A program made the position numbers and the translations under genes. The notes below the pieces were generated by a model. That model saw only the letters and a list, made by a program, of their open reading frames with translations, was not told where the DNA came from and searched no databases. From Kiloniella sp. EL199 (lineage in GTDB: Bacteria; Pseudomonadota; Alphaproteobacteria; Kiloniellales; Kiloniellaceae), in contig NZ_OMPU01000013.1 in NCBI RefSeq assembly GCF_900313065.1, positions 310,001 through 374,000 on the forward strand: DNA of 64,000 nucleotides, read 5' to 3'. Below, in pieces: positions 3,772 through 29,462 of this stretch. Numbering within the stretch: the first letter of the stretch is position 1; each line of letters starts with the position of its first letter.

Positions 3772-4803
3772 TCAGCCCCTGACGAGCTTTAGCATTTTTT
3801 CAACATTCTCAATTGGTGTTTGCGGCACAATGCCATGACCCAGATTGAAAATAAAGGGGCCACCACTGAGATCGTTCATAATGGTTTCAATGGATTTTTC
3901 CAATATGTCACCACCAGCTACCAGCACGAGCGGATCCAAATTACCTTGGACAGTGACGTGAGATTGAATGTTATCTCTGGCCCAGGACGTTGACAAAGTT
4001 GTATCCAGACCCAAGGCATCAGCTCCGCTTTCTTTAGCAAAAACTGGATAGCTGTCCCCTACTCCCCTTGGAAAGAGAATAACCGGGACGTTTGGACAAA
4101 CTGATTTGATTCCGGCTATAATCTGTTTACAGGGTTCCAAGCACCAACGACGTAAAGCAAATTCCGGCCATACGCCTGCCCAGGAATCAAAGATCTGTAC
4201 TGTTTCTGCACCGCTTTCAATTTGTTTGATCAGGTATTTGGTTGTTGCTTCAACCACCAGATTAATAATTTGATCAAACTCTTCAGGTTTTGAATAGGCC
4301 CAGGTTTTAGCTTTGGCATAATCTTTGGAAGATCCACCTTCAATCATATAACTGGCAACTGTCCAGGGAGCTCCTGCAAAACCGATCAAGGTCGTTTCTT
4401 TTGGTAGTTCTTCTTTCAGACGACCTAGTGTTTCATACATGGGTGCTAAATGTTCATGAAGATTATCCATATTGAGGTTTGATAGATCTTCTATGGAATT
4501 AAGTCCTTCGAGTTTAGGACCTACGCCCTCTTCAAACCATACTTTTTGACCAAGCGCATGAGGTATAACCAAAATATCGCTAAACATAATTGATGCATCA
4601 AAACCAAATCTGCGAATGGGTTGAAGGGTAACTTCTACTGCAAGATCCGGTGTGTAACAAAGGTCGAGAAAGCCGTTCGCAGATGCTCTTGTTTTTCTGT
4701 ATTCAGGTAAAAAACGCCCTGCTTGTCTCATTAGCCAGATTGGTGTGCGCTCTGTTTTTTCGCCTTTGAGGGCGCGTATCATGAGTTTGTTTTCGGTTTT
4801 CAC
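3772..4803 (-). CDS. hemE: Uroporphyrinogen decarboxylase
   Basis: HemE decarboxylates the four acetate side chains of uroporphyrinogen III to give coproporphyrinogen III in haem synthesis. The 343 residues match the family length. The N-terminal signature IWLMRQAGRFLPEYR is present, as is the second signature around GFAGAPWTVASYMIEG, and the C-terminal NLGHGI. The first codon is GTG at 4801-4803. An in-frame ATG seven codons later (4780-4782) is possible, but it would trim the start and has no better ribosome site. Its promoter must lie in the adjacent putative origin region, a classical location for hemE in alphaproteobacteria. Confidence 0.96.
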   Translation of the reverse strand: MKTENKLMIRALKGEKTERTPIWLMRQAGRFLPEYRKTRASANGFLDLCYTPDLAVEVTLQPIRRFGFDASIMFSDILVIPHALGQKVWFEEGVGPKLEGLNSIEDLSNLNMDNLHEHLAPMYETLGRLKEELPKETTLIGFAGAPWTVASYMIEGGSSKDYAKAKTWAYSKPEEFDQIINLVVEATTKYLIKQIESGAETVQIFDSWAGVWPEFALRRWCLEPCKQIIAGIKSVCPNVPVILFPRGVGDSYPVFAKESGADALGLDTTLSTSWARDNIQSHVTVQGNLDPLVLVAGGDILEKSIETIMNDLSGGPFIFNLGHGIVPQTPIENVEKMLKLVRG

Positions 4804-5487
4804 GATCTCTTTGAACCTCGCGTTAAGAGTTATCTCTATTAATATACTATGTAATAGTAATTATTTGTTGTTGTTGTAGATCCCTGTGAATCACGAGGAT
4901 TAGTCAGTTATTCATAACTTGTCCTCAAGCTTCAAGTCTTCAATTTAAAATTTTCGTGATTCCTGATTGTTCTGTGAATTTCATCGTGGATTGAAAATGG
5001 GGACTCGTTAACGAATCTCGGAGTCCTATTTTTTCCTTAATTACCTTAATTATGGGGATAACTTTTTTACATTTCGGAGTCCTTTTACAAGTTTTGCACA
5101 GATGTGAGTATTGCAGCGAATTGTCGCATAAGGTGAGGGAATGACTTGAGGACAGGGTGTGTAGAAAAAGAGCATGTGGACAAATAGCTATAGTTATCCA
5201 CAAAGTTTTACGCACTACCCCCAATTTTGTTCACATTTGAGAGTGCGACGAGAATAGTCGTATTGTCCGAAGAATAAATTGTTGTTTTTCTTTGGCTTGG
5301 TGTTTGTTCTGGTGCTTTAAAAAAGGTGAATTTTGCCGATTAAAAATTAACTATTCCTTGAAGAAAATATGAAAATAGATTGCTTTCCCGCTCAGACAGG
5401 TTTCGTGCTTTGGACTTAATGTGTATGTATGAAGCACAATAATGTGCCGGGAAGCCGAGAGGCTGGGCCAAGAGTTCGGAAATAAAT
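4804..5487. other. oriC: Candidate chromosomal replication origin (oriC)
   Basis: This is a 684-bp gene-free stretch between divergent hemE (minus) and ppsR (plus). DnaA-box-like 9-mers cluster at 5053-5061 (minus, TTATCCCCA), 5092-5100 (TTTTGCACA, fits TTWTNCACA), 5175-5183 (minus, TTGTCCACA), 5194-5202 (TTATCCACA, perfect) and 5227-5235 (TTGTTCACA). Six GANTC sites, the CcrM methylation target of alphaproteobacteria, lie at 4888, 4958, 5002, 5013, 5021 and 5077. An AT-rich tract at about 5318-5375 could be the unwinding element. A hemE-adjacent oriC is established in Caulobacter and Rickettsia. A 94-codon open frame on the minus strand inside the region has no recognisable product. Confidence 0.72.
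5194..5202 (+). promoter_or_regulatory. Consensus DnaA box
   Basis: A perfect TTATCCACA is present, 11 bp from an inverted one-mismatch box (5175-5183). Together they form the core of the DnaA-box cluster in the hemE-ppsR gap. Confidence 0.75.
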
Positions 5488-6309
5488 ATGTCGCAAACCC
5501 ATTTACACCTTGTTTCAGATTCTACAGGCGAAACGATCAATTCTGTCGCCCGCGCCTGTATGGTTCAGTTTAAAGTAGAAGAACCTATTGAACATGTCTG
5601 GAGCTTGATCCGAACCAAGGTTCAAATGGAAAAGGTTCTGCATCAAATTCGACAAAAACCTGGACCAGTTCTTTTTACAGTTGTTAATCAAGAGCTTAGA
5701 GAGATTTTAATTCGTGAATGTCGGCGTCTTGGATTACCCTCTATTCCGGTTCTTGATCCAGTTATCCATGCGCTTGCCAGCTATTTCAATCTGGAAATGT
5801 CGGGTAAACCCGGTCTGCAACACACACTGGATTCAGAATATTTCAATCGAATTGAAGCAATGAATTTTGCGCTGAATCATGATGACGGACAACTGCCCCA
5901 AAATCTGAATGACGCCGAGATTGTATTGCTGGGTGTTTCCAGAACATCAAAAACGCCCACCTGTATCTACCTCGCTAACCGGGGATATAAAGCAGCAAAT
6001 GTTCCTATTGTTCCGGGATGTCCCTTGCCGAAAGAGTTGGAAAGTTTAGGCAATCCTTTGGTTGTTGGCCTAACAAAAGACCCGGCAAGCCTGATGCAGA
6101 TCCGTCGCAGTCGGTTGAAAATGATCTCGAATGAAGAAGAAACAGACTATGTTCACCTGGAATCTATCAAGGAAGAGGTGAAAATGGCGCGGAAGTTTTG
6201 TAACGAGCATCGCTGGCCAATTATTGATGTAACCCGCCGTTCTATAGAAGAAACTGCTGCAACAATTATAAAACACTATCATCGTCATATGGGCATTGCT
6301 GATGAATAG
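5488..6309 (+). CDS. ppsR: Pyruvate,phosphate dikinase / PEP synthase regulatory kinase-phosphotransferase (DUF299)
   Basis: This bifunctional enzyme uses ADP to phosphorylate, and phosphate to reactivate, a threonine of PEP synthase or pyruvate phosphate dikinase, gating gluconeogenic PEP formation. The 273 residues open with the conserved HLVSDSTGETINSVARA. The P-loop-like GVSRTSKTPTCIYLANRG lies near residues 150-167, and the C-terminal RRSRL-x-EET segment follows. A GGA seven bases before the ATG is the ribosome site. It is the first gene to the right of the putative oriC and overlaps the start of maf. Its target enzyme is not in the window. Confidence 0.94.
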   Translation: MSQTHLHLVSDSTGETINSVARACMVQFKVEEPIEHVWSLIRTKVQMEKVLHQIRQKPGPVLFTVVNQELREILIRECRRLGLPSIPVLDPVIHALASYFNLEMSGKPGLQHTLDSEYFNRIEAMNFALNHDDGQLPQNLNDAEIVLLGVSRTSKTPTCIYLANRGYKAANVPIVPGCPLPKELESLGNPLVVGLTKDPASLMQIRRSRLKMISNEEETDYVHLESIKEEVKMARKFCNEHRWPIIDVTRRSIEETAATIIKHYHRHMGIADE

Positions 6310-27938: not shown

Positions 27939-29462
27939 TTACTTTCTTGGCTTTTTATAACGTAAAGCTTCGGCTATGTGCTTTGTCTCAATCATTTCCT
28001 GATTATCCAGATCGGCGATAGTTCGTGAAACCTTGAGAACGCGATGATAAGCGCGGGCTGAGAGTTTGAACGTCTCTGAGGCGCGGTGCATCAATTCTTT
28101 TTCCCTGGGACCGAGTAAGGCAATTTTATCCAGAATTTCGCCCTCTGCTTCTGCATTGCAATGGGGTCGTTTCTGTTCTGGATAAGCTGCATATCGTTCT
28201 GTTTGGATATCACGTGCTGCCTGAACCCGAAGAGCAACATCACGGCTACCTTCTTTCGGAGGTGGCAGGGATAAGTCAGATGCTCTGACGGGGGGAACAT
28301 CGAGATAGAGATCAATTCGATCATAGAGTGGTGCAGAGATACGGGCTTGATATTGAGTGCTACATCTTGGACCTCTGGCGCAAATCTGGGTAACAGGATC
28401 AACCTCTCCGCAACGGCAGGGATTCATTGCAGCAATCATCTGAACACGTGCAGGATATGTAATATGGGCTTCTGCGCGAGCAATGGAAATTTTACCGGTT
28501 TCCAGTGGTTGCCGTAAAGTTTCCAATACATTGCGATTAAATTCGGGGAGTTCGTCGAGAAAAAGAACGCCTCTGTGAGCAAGAGATATCTCTCCGGGTT
28601 TTGCTTTGGGCCCGCCGCCTGCAATGGCGGGCGCAGAGGCAGAGTGGTGCGGATCTCTGTAGGGGCGTAAATTCTCTAACGCGCCATTCTTTAACAAACC
28701 TGCAAGGGAGTGAATCATGCTGACTTCGAGAATTTCTTCGGGCAGAAGTTCTGGCAAAATAGACGGTAATCGAGAAGCGAGCATTGATTTTCCAGACCCG
28801 GGTGGCCCATTAAACAGCAAATGGTGGCCGCCAGCTGCTGCGATTTCAAGAACACGTTTGGCTGTTTCCTGGCCCTTAACGTCCCTTAGGTCAGGAAGGT
28901 GTCGGCGATCACTCGCCGGCTGAGGTAATGCTGTTTTGGGAGGCGAGAGTATCTGGCGTCCATTGATATGATTTGTGAGAGCTAAAAGGCTGGGCGGGGC
29001 AATAATCTCTAACCCTTTCACCCACGCAGCTTCTCCGCCCTGATTTTCAGGGCAAATAATGCCCTTATCACTTGCCAAGGCCTGTAAAGCGGCGGGTAAA
29101 ATGCCATTTACGGCCCGGATAGTTCCATCAAGTGCCAATTCTCCAAGAACAAGATAGGTTGTTAGCTCGCTTGCCGGCACAATTTCCATGGCGGCAAGGA
29201 TGCCAAGCGCGATGGGAAGATCGTAATGACTGCCTTCTTTCTGTAAATCGGCCGGGGCCAGATTGACTGTGATTCTTTTCGGAGGAAGCGCGAGACCAAT
29301 TGCGGTTAAAGCTGCACGTACTCTTTCCCGGCTCTCGGCAACGGCTTTATCTGGTAATCCGACAATATGAAAAGCGGGCAATCCACTTGATAGTTGGACT
29401 TGTACTTCGATGTCGCGAACTTCTATACCCTGAAAAGAAACAGTATTGATCTGGACGGTCAT
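27939..29462 (-). CDS. comM: YifB/ComM-family Mg-chelatase-like AAA+ ATPase
   Basis: This is a hexameric helicase of the ComM family; in naturally competent bacteria ComM promotes branch migration during transformation. The 507 residues have an N-terminal Lon-like fold (PAFHIVGLPDKAVAESRERV). The AAA+ core has Walker A NGPPGSGKSMLASRLP (about residue 218), Walker B GVLFLDELPEF, and the Mg-chelatase block SARAYHRVLKVSRTIADLD at the C-terminus. A zinc-like CRCGEVDPVTQICARGPRC insert is typical. In many relatives it is next to gshB; here about 6.6 kb separates them. Confidence 0.93.
   Translation of the reverse strand: MTVQINTVSFQGIEVRDIEVQVQLSSGLPAFHIVGLPDKAVAESRERVRAALTAIGLALPPKRITVNLAPADLQKEGSHYDLPIALGILAAMEIVPASELTTYLVLGELALDGTIRAVNGILPAALQALASDKGIICPENQGGEAAWVKGLEIIAPPSLLALTNHINGRQILSPPKTALPQPASDRRHLPDLRDVKGQETAKRVLEIAAAGGHHLLFNGPPGSGKSMLASRLPSILPELLPEEILEVSMIHSLAGLLKNGALENLRPYRDPHHSASAPAIAGGGPKAKPGEISLAHRGVLFLDELPEFNRNVLETLRQPLETGKISIARAEAHITYPARVQMIAAMNPCRCGEVDPVTQICARGPRCSTQYQARISAPLYDRIDLYLDVPPVRASDLSLPPPKEGSRDVALRVQAARDIQTERYAAYPEQKRPHCNAEAEGEILDKIALLGPREKELMHRASETFKLSARAYHRVLKVSRTIADLDNQEMIETKHIAEALRYKKPRK

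What the first reader, a model, noticed from the sequence alone, without database searches (positions are those of the whole stretch)
4804..5487. Putative oriC between hemE and ppsR
The sequence shows five DnaA-box-like 9-mers in 183 bp (one perfect TTATCCACA, one TTWTNCACA match, three with one mismatch) and six GANTC sites between 4888 and 5081, where fewer than one would be expected by chance in 194 bp. Genes diverge on both sides (hemE, hemJ, rho left; ppsR to dnaQ right). hemE-adjacent origins are established in Caulobacter and Rickettsia. Two GANTC sites form the arms of an inverted repeat GGACTC / GAGTCC at 5001-5026, which might link methylation state to local structure.
Basis: partly seen in the sequence, partly recalled or inferred. 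Interest (0 to 1): 0.72.

Follow-up and report, generated by a model that had tools for sequence, protein, structure and literature searches.

The report
Chromosome replication origin of Kiloniella
The stretch between hemE and ppsR is almost certainly where this bacterium starts copying its chromosome, a known arrangement in its class, and its DNA-opening element carries an unusual three-letter repeat that may be read by an altered residue of the DnaA starter protein.

Summary
The 684-bp gap between hemE and ppsR in this Kiloniella genome is very probably oriC. It has the window's only exact TTATCCACA and its densest GANTC cluster. The GC-skew minimum over a contiguous 184 kb falls at window 4610. 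Four parS-like sites and parB lie 5.5-12 kb away; dnaA is 253 kb away without a skew switch. In 8 of 8 Kiloniella genomes with hemE in the fetched stretch (own included), the perfect box and five of six GANTC sites are kept. Divergent hemE/ppsR occurs in 52 of 56 sampled class members with ppsR. This is the known Caulobacter/Rickettsia type: a new member.

Oriented TNG triplet arrays recur in the class. Its DnaA mostly has Tyr/Phe/His where B. subtilis Asn187 reads the middle trio base (36 of 39; 0 of 20 non-class genomes). A shifted trio code is plausible and testable, unproven. The inverted-repeat idea is not supported.

The parts
4804..5487 (.). putative oriC: intergenic region between divergent hemE and ppsR
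3772..4803 (-). hemE (uroporphyrinogen decarboxylase), left boundary gene
   Evidence: TIGR01464, 414 bits, cut-off 303
5488..6309 (+). ppsR / PRK05339 family gene (taken as the DUF299-COG1806 gene of the papers), right boundary gene
   Evidence: NF003742, 336 bits, cut-off 225; the equation with COG1806 is from recall
4885..4893 (-). DnaA-box-like TGATTCACA next to the putative unwinding element; contains GANTC 4888
   Evidence: 7 of 9 columns invariant, GANTC kept in 8 of 8 Kiloniella genomes
4894..4902 (-). abutting weak DnaA-box-like 9-mer TAATCCTCG (TAATCCCCA/G in K. laminariae), possible tandem partner
   Evidence: inference
4880..4884 (-). 5-bp spacer GGGAT between box and triplets
   Evidence: architecture as in PMC8235120 (passages)
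4865..4879 (+). triplet array TTG TTG TTG TTG TAG (read from the box: 3'-GAT-GTT-GTT-GTT-GTT-5'), putative variant DnaA-trios
   Evidence: the only 5-of-5 TWG run in the window on either strand
4852..4864 (.). AT-rich block TAATAGTAATTAT, invariant in 8 of 8 Kiloniella, putative strand-opening site; 4852-4860 reads as canonical-type trios 3'-AAT-GAT-AAT-5'
4908..4924 (+). 17-bp block TTATTCATAACTTGTCC invariant in 8 of 8 Kiloniella; starts with a DnaA-box-like 9-mer
5053..5061 (-). DnaA-box-like TTATCCCCA
5092..5100 (+). DnaA-box-like TTTTGCACA
5175..5183 (-). DnaA-box-like TTGTCCACA
5194..5202 (+). exact DnaA box TTATCCACA, invariant in 8 of 8 Kiloniella and exact in 4 of 4 genomes of sister genus g2
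5227..5235 (+). DnaA-box-like TTGTTCACA (TTATTCACA or TTATGCACA in three relatives)
5116..5131 (.). 16-bp block GCGAATTGTCGCATAA invariant in 8 of 8 Kiloniella, role unknown
4888..4892 (.). GANTC (CcrM) site, kept 8 of 8, N varies A/G
4958..4962 (.). GANTC site, kept in 3 of 8 only
5002..5006 (.). GANTC site, kept 8 of 8
5013..5017 (.). GANTC site, kept 8 of 8, N varies A/G/C
5021..5025 (.). GANTC site, kept 8 of 8
5077..5081 (.). GANTC site, kept 8 of 8

Best explanation
The hemE-ppsR gap is the chromosome's oriC. Inferred mechanism: DnaA loads on the box cluster at 5053-5235 and on the box(es) at 4885-4902. From there a DnaA oligomer crosses the GGGAT spacer onto the + strand triplets (from 4879 towards 4852) and melts the AT-rich block on the hemE side, where helicase is loaded. 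Two forks leave in opposite directions, which gives the local GC-skew switch. ParB on the four parS-like sites 5.5-10 kb to the left segregates the new origins. Shown here by sequence: anatomy, skew switch, synteny, conservation, parS/parB proximity, a CcrM gene. Inferred, not shown: DnaA binding, site of melting, actual initiation, ParB binding, any role of methylation.
For: Box-like and GANTC clusters. Cumulative GC-skew minimum of the contiguous C3:230001-414000 at window 4610; of the sampled 5-kb bins from 30 kb to 310 kb all but one are negative, and all sampled bins from 315 kb to 454 kb are positive. parB at C3:302962-303489 and parS-like sites at C3:304789, 305074, 307353, 309283 with 0-1 mismatches. 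Conserved blocks and boxes in the 8 of 9 genus genomes that had hemE in the fetched stretch, own included; no conservation from 5244 to about 5364. Divergent hemE within the fetched flank of ppsR in 22 of 23 family genomes and in 52 of 56 class genomes with ppsR, of 60 searched. Same boundary genes as the experimentally identified Caulobacter origin (PMC1914354, passages). Order box - 5-bp spacer - triplets - AT-rich as in PMC8235120 (passages). No Rfam match; promoter-like matches at chance level (3 against 2.1 +/- 1.1).
Against: No direct replication data. The genome is a 19-contig draft, so skew was judged on 304 kb (12 stretches plus the window), not on a whole circle. One bin left of the origin (255001) is slightly positive, +0.020. 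By TTATCCACA with up to one mismatch the cluster only ties with one at 28003, and exact boxes also occur at four other sampled places on C3. No exact CtrA site (TTAA-N7-TTAA) and no exact IHF consensus. In one of nine genus members (G011) hemE was not found in the 1.5 kb upstream of ppsR. An exact TTATCCACA is in the gap of 0 of 8 genomes of genus g5, and of neither G005 nor G006.
Confidence: 0.96

Rival explanations
1. The gap is only a divergent promoter/5'-leader region of hemE and ppsR; the boxes are transcriptional DnaA sites and the true origin is nearby, for instance at parS.
For: The gap should hold the hemE and ppsR promoters (inference); three weak sigma-70-like matches; a partly conserved stretch at about 5384-5443 next to ppsR could be a leader.
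Against: The promoter count is at chance level; the best conserved blocks include boxes, GANTC sites and the triplet element, far from ppsR; the skew minimum is at window 4610, not at parS, C3:304.8-309.3 kb; class-wide synteny with the established Caulobacter origin.
Confidence: 0.03
2. The origin is at dnaA, 253 kb away, as in many other bacteria.
For: dnaA-linked origins are common outside this class (recalled).
Against: GC skew is negative in all twelve 5-kb bins at C3:30-90 kb around dnaA, with no switch; no exact TTATCCACA in those 60 kb.
Confidence: 0.01
3. The TTG/TAG array at 4865-4879 is not read by DnaA at all; it is an easily melted spacer, and the working trios are the canonical-type 3'-AAT-GAT-AAT-5' just beyond it (4852-4860), or trios next to another box.
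For: Canonical-type NAN trios exist there; B. subtilis DnaA works poorly with T in the middle position (PMC10721633, passages); 12 of 29 loose boxes in the gap have 3 or more NAN trios within 16 bp, so such arrangements are cheap in AT-rich DNA; TNG arrays of 4 of 5 also turn up in 23 (+) and 18 (-) of 651 mostly coding slices of the own genome.
Against: The array is in phase directly after a 5-bp spacer; TNG arrays recur on the same strand and in the hemE half of class gaps (15 of 52 at 4 of 5 triplets, 0 of 52 on the other strand, 15 in the hemE half and 0 in the other); non-coding control gaps of the own genome show 0 and 1 of 126; DnaA of the class differs at the residue that reads the middle base.
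Confidence: 0.4
4. Methylation of the GANTC sites by CcrM gates re-initiation (a Dam/SeqA-like switch), with the GACTC/GAGTC inverted repeat as a structural sensor.
For: Six sites in 194 bp; five of six kept in 8 of 8 genomes while N changes at two of them; one site lies inside the box at 4885; CcrM gene present (1.5e-161 to CcrMI, 6pbd).
Against: In Caulobacter, DNA content of cells without CcrM was like wild type and the authors concluded that CcrM is not required for control of initiation (PMC3973325 section 15 read), although over-expression gave extra chromosomes (cited there). GANTC is over-represented more than 1.5-fold in intergenic DNA of the class in general (same paper, passages); the class gaps here show 150 against 88 expected, about that level. 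The outer pair of the inverted repeat is broken in 3 of 8 genomes.
Confidence: 0.15

Closest known systems
Caulobacter crescentus Cori (hemE / COG1806 origin)
   Same: Same boundary genes, DnaA boxes, AT-rich DNA (PMC1914354, passages) and several GANTC motifs (PMC3973325 section 15). That dnaA lies elsewhere and parS/parB near in Caulobacter is recalled.
   Different: No exact CtrA (TTAA-N7-TTAA) or IHF consensus found here, where Cori has five CtrA sites and one IHF site; the gap is longer (684 bp against 404 bp listed).
Rickettsia prowazekii ori (hemE / RP001)
   Same: Same boundary genes (PMC1914354, passages).
   Different: There AT content is 82.6% over 384 bp; here 63% over 684 bp.
BUS, basal unwinding system (DnaA box + DnaA-trios) of Bacillus subtilis and others
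   Same: Box, 4-5 bp spacer, in-phase triplets, then AT-rich DNA, in the same polarity.
   Different: Trios 2-5 have T, not A, in the middle (3'-GTT-5'); the published search rule of three NAN trios within 16 bp (PMC8287927) is not met from the box at 4885 or 4894 (1 trio each). The DnaA residue aligned to Asn187 is Tyr217.

Membership tests
Alphaproteobacterial hemE/COG1806 oriC | intergenic region between hemE and the COG1806/DUF299 (ppsR) gene | tested here: met
Alphaproteobacterial hemE/COG1806 oriC | cluster of DnaA boxes | tested here: met
   conserved in Kiloniella
Alphaproteobacterial hemE/COG1806 oriC | AT content above the surrounding genome | tested here: met
   gap GC 0.37; the 64 one-kb bins of the window range from 0.37 to 0.51, one bin (35001) as low as the gap
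Alphaproteobacterial hemE/COG1806 oriC | GC-skew switch at the site | tested here: met
   minimum at window 4610 over 184 contiguous kb
Alphaproteobacterial hemE/COG1806 oriC | CtrA sites TTAA-N7-TTAA | tested here: not met
   0 exact; two one-mismatch places (4812, 5347), neither kept across Kiloniella by eye on the alignment. Not strict: an accepted member (E. ruminantium) also lacks them at that paper's stringency
Alphaproteobacterial hemE/COG1806 oriC | IHF site | tested here: inconclusive
   0 exact WATCAANNNNTTR, one with one mismatch at 5275; the looser consensus of PMC1914354 was not run
Alphaproteobacterial hemE/COG1806 oriC | replication starts here in vivo | not testable with these tools
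   needs marker-frequency data
BUS (DnaA box + DnaA-trios) | DnaA box followed by 4-5 bp GC-rich spacer | tested here: met
   TGATTCACA-GGGAT, (spacer 3 of 5 G/C; the box has one mismatch to TTWTNCACA)
BUS (DnaA box + DnaA-trios) | at least three NAN trios within 16 bp of the box | tested here: not met
   one NAN trio from the box at 4885 and one from 4894; triplet periodicity is there but with middle T. Twelve other loose boxes of 29 in the gap meet the rule
BUS (DnaA box + DnaA-trios) | DnaA-dependent strand separation that needs box and trios | not testable with these tools
   in vitro assay needed

The most novel reading that the evidence does not exclude
Alphaproteobacteria use a shifted DnaA-trio code. 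Their origins keep the G and T frame of each trio but accept T, A or G (rarely C) in the middle (3'-G[T/A/G]T-5'), and this goes with Tyr (or Phe/His) in DnaA at the position of B. subtilis Asn187, which contacts the middle base. Kiloniella, with four GTT trios in a row behind one GAT, is a clean case.
Probability: 0.4. Interest if true: 0.72.

Novelty: new member of a known kind. Interest (0 to 1): 0.42.

Why it matters
The origin fixes the replication map of Kiloniella (gene dosage, strand bias) and gives a candidate minimal region for a replicating plasmid. If the trio reading is right, single-strand recognition by DnaA has diverged in a whole bacterial class together with one residue of the initiator. 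Trio searches built on a middle A would then fit such origins poorly, and the idea can be tested with purified DnaA and short scaffolds.

Tried and rejected
Origin at dnaA: no skew switch there. Regulatory RNA in the gap: no Rfam match at gathering thresholds. Inverted repeat at 5001-5026 as a structural element: outer pair not conserved. CtrA and IHF control: no exact sites. Class-wide excess of GANTC at origins as a special feature: 150 against 88 expected by shuffling, about the general intergenic excess reported, so not claimed. A link inside the class between the DnaA residue and a TWG array of at least 3 of 5: Y/F/H in 17 of 18 with and 10 of 12 without, so no contrast; the contrast is only between the class and others. 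The pattern ATCCCTGTGANTCNNGGGGAT with up to 2 mismatches: 33 of 289 class genomes (own genus included), reversed-pattern control 1 of 289. Of the 30 loci fetched from it, 15 hold hemE (13 also ppsR; two of these are Kiloniella) and 15 do not; those 15 were not followed up.

Searches for print, in one open-access library: DnaA-trio with Alphaproteobacteria gave 1 paper, on Epsilonproteobacteria (listing only); DnaA-trio with Caulobacter 16 (listing; passages of two of them seen, PMC8235120 and PMC10225481); DnaA / tyrosine / initiator specific motif / single-stranded DNA / Caulobacter 0; Kiloniella with replication origin 0. A shifted trio code is said to be unreported only as far as these searches go.

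Full report
What is there. The window is C3:310001-374000 of a 4.18-Mb, 19-contig assembly. The closest named records by ppsR (91-99% identity) include Kiloniella litopenaei, spongiae, majae and laminariae, so the organism is taken as a Kiloniella (Alphaproteobacteria, Rhodospirillales, Kiloniellaceae); its own record is not named. hemE (3772-4803, -) and ppsR (5488-6309, +) diverge from a 684-bp gap, with hemJ and rho to the left, and maf-like, aroE, coaE, dnaQ and then secB (on the - strand) to the right.

Observation. GANTC: 6 in 194 bp where about 0.5 are expected, and the best places elsewhere have 4. Boxes: by TTWTNCACA with up to one mismatch, 9 in 183 bp against 4 at the best other place; by TTATCCACA with up to one mismatch, 3, a tie with a place at 28003. 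The exact box occurs once in the window and five times in the 304 kb of C3 examined.

Is it the origin? The cumulative GC skew has its minimum at C3:314610 (window 4610) over the contiguous 230001-414000. Of the 5-kb bins sampled from 30 kb to 310 kb all but one (255001, +0.020) are negative; the bin 310001 that holds the switch is -0.017; all sampled bins from 315 kb to 454 kb are positive. dnaA sits at C3:60.2-61.6 kb in negative skew. A parB gene lies at C3:302962-303489. Four parS-like 16-mers with 1, 0, 0 and 1 mismatches lie at C3:304789, 305074, 307353 and 309283; elsewhere in the 304 kb examined only one site with up to 3 mismatches was found. parA was not looked for.

Conservation. 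Of 23 family genomes all have ppsR, and 22 have hemE divergently upstream in the fetched 1.5 kb; G011 does not. The eight Kiloniella gaps (own included, G011 left out) align from 4804 to about 5240: 269 of 437 columns are invariant. Then conservation is zero until about 5364, with a partly conserved stretch at 5384-5443. Invariant runs of at least 9 bases are TAATAGTAATTATTTGT (4852), GTTGTTGTAGATCCCTGTGA (4870), TTATTCATAACTTGTCC (4908), GGGGATAACTT (5054), GGAGTCCTT (5076), GCGAATTGTCGCATAA (5116) and AGTTATCCACAAAGTTTT (5192). Five of six GANTC sites are kept in 8 of 8, with N changing at two of them, which points to selection for GANTC itself; the sixth (4958) is kept in 3 of 8. Five of the eight genomes are close to one another, so these are not eight independent tests. 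In sister genus g2 the exact box is kept in 4 of 4; in g5 in 0 of 8, and in G005 and G006 in neither. Across the class 60 genomes (chosen from the list, mostly one per family and above 2.2 Mb) were searched, 56 have ppsR, and 52 of these have hemE divergent beside it in the fetched stretch.

Known kind. The Caulobacter origin lies between hemE and the COG1806/DUF299 gene, and the Rickettsia one likewise (PMC1914354, passages). The gap is therefore a new member of an established type. No exact CtrA or IHF consensus was found.

Methylation. A CcrM gene is present (N6_N4_Mtase plus RAMA domains, 1.5e-161 to CcrMI). In Caulobacter the authors concluded that CcrM is not required for control of initiation (PMC3973325, section 15 read), so a gating role here is only a possibility.

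The putative unwinding element. Read on the - strand, 4902 to 4852 is TAATCCTCG-TGATTCACA-GGGAT-CTA-CAA-CAA-CAA-CAA-ATAATTACTATTA. This matches the published order of DnaA box, 4-5 bp GC-rich spacer, trios (3'-GAT-5', seen as 5'-CTA-3' on the other strand) and AT-rich DNA (PMC8235120, passages; PMC8287927, section 14 part 1 of 2 read, and passages). The departure is the middle base of trios 2-5: T instead of A. By the published rule of three NAN trios within 16 bp of a box, the boxes at 4885 and 4894 fail with one trio each. Loosely defined boxes with NAN trios are common in this gap (12 of 29), and three canonical-type trios (4852-4860) lie just beyond the TTG array, so a canonical reading stays open.

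Class-wide test. Among 52 class gaps, arrays with at least 3 of 5 TWG triplets occur in 18 on the + strand and 1 on the - strand (20 shuffles: mean 2.5, maximum 6); in the family in 18 of 22 against 1 (mean 3.0, maximum 8), though these genomes are related. With the middle base free (TNG, at least 4 of 5): 15 of 52 on +, 0 on -, 100 shuffles mean 1.8, maximum 6; at 3 of 5: 42 against 10. TNG is the commonest of the 16 period-three pairs (15; next GNG with 9), and 15 gaps have it in the hemE half and none in the other. Controls from the own genome: non-coding gaps (126 pieces, 23.1 kb) show 0 on + and 1 on -; mostly coding slices show 23 and 18 of 651. Middle bases in the 15 arrays are G 23, T 22, A 20, C 1; at the laxer 3-of-5 level G 47, T 47, A 42, C 11. 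The stretch looks C-poor in general (by eye), so the lack of C is suggestive only.

DnaA. B. subtilis Asn187 contacts the middle adenine; C can replace A, while T and G are poor (PMC10721633, passages). The same paper says that the residues around the trio are not universally conserved. In the alignment to 8btg, Kiloniella has Tyr217 there and Lys232 at the place of Arg202; Lys is at that second place in all 39 class and 14 of 20 other genomes, so it is not class-typical. At the Asn187 place 39 class genomes have Y 29, F 4, H 3, N 2, S 1 (the S is G205, a distant DnaA at 29% identity). They are 30 chosen genomes and 9 further ones from a phylum sample; 6 class genomes of that sample gave no locus. 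The 20 non-class genomes have A 6, T 6, N 6, Q 2; they are the best-scoring 20 of 44 non-class genomes in that sample. So a class-typical residue and class-typical triplets with a non-A middle go together at the level of the class. Within the class there is no contrast to test cause, and origins of the non-class genomes were not examined for TNG arrays.

Verdict. oriC: very probable, ordinary for the class. The altered trio code: a real pattern in sequence, an open claim in function.

Noticed in passing
L020 (G011:C31:1787-5605): In this incomplete genus member no hemE was found in the 1.5 kb upstream of ppsR; rearranged origin or misassembly.
   Followed up: no
window 5116-5131: Invariant 16-mer GCGAATTGTCGCATAA between the DnaA boxes in 8 of 8 Kiloniella; no known site recognised.
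   Followed up: no
G000:C3:304789, 305074, 307353, 309283 (left of the window): Four parS-like sites with 0-1 mismatches within about 10 kb of the origin, beside parB.
   Followed up: partly
L029-L036 (genus g5 hemE-ppsR gaps): 0 of 8 genomes have an exact TTATCCACA in the gap, yet a GATCCCTGTGA-type element and a GGGGATAACGGGGA block are kept in the alignment; DnaA-box usage seems to have drifted.
   Followed up: partly
L055-L084: 15 of 30 fetched matches to the element pattern in class genomes have no hemE in the fetched stretch; moved origins or chance.
   Followed up: no
window 28003-28185: Three TTATCCACA-like 9-mers (up to one mismatch) in 183 bp, as many as at the origin by that rule, inside a long ORF at 27939-29462 (-).
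   Followed up: no
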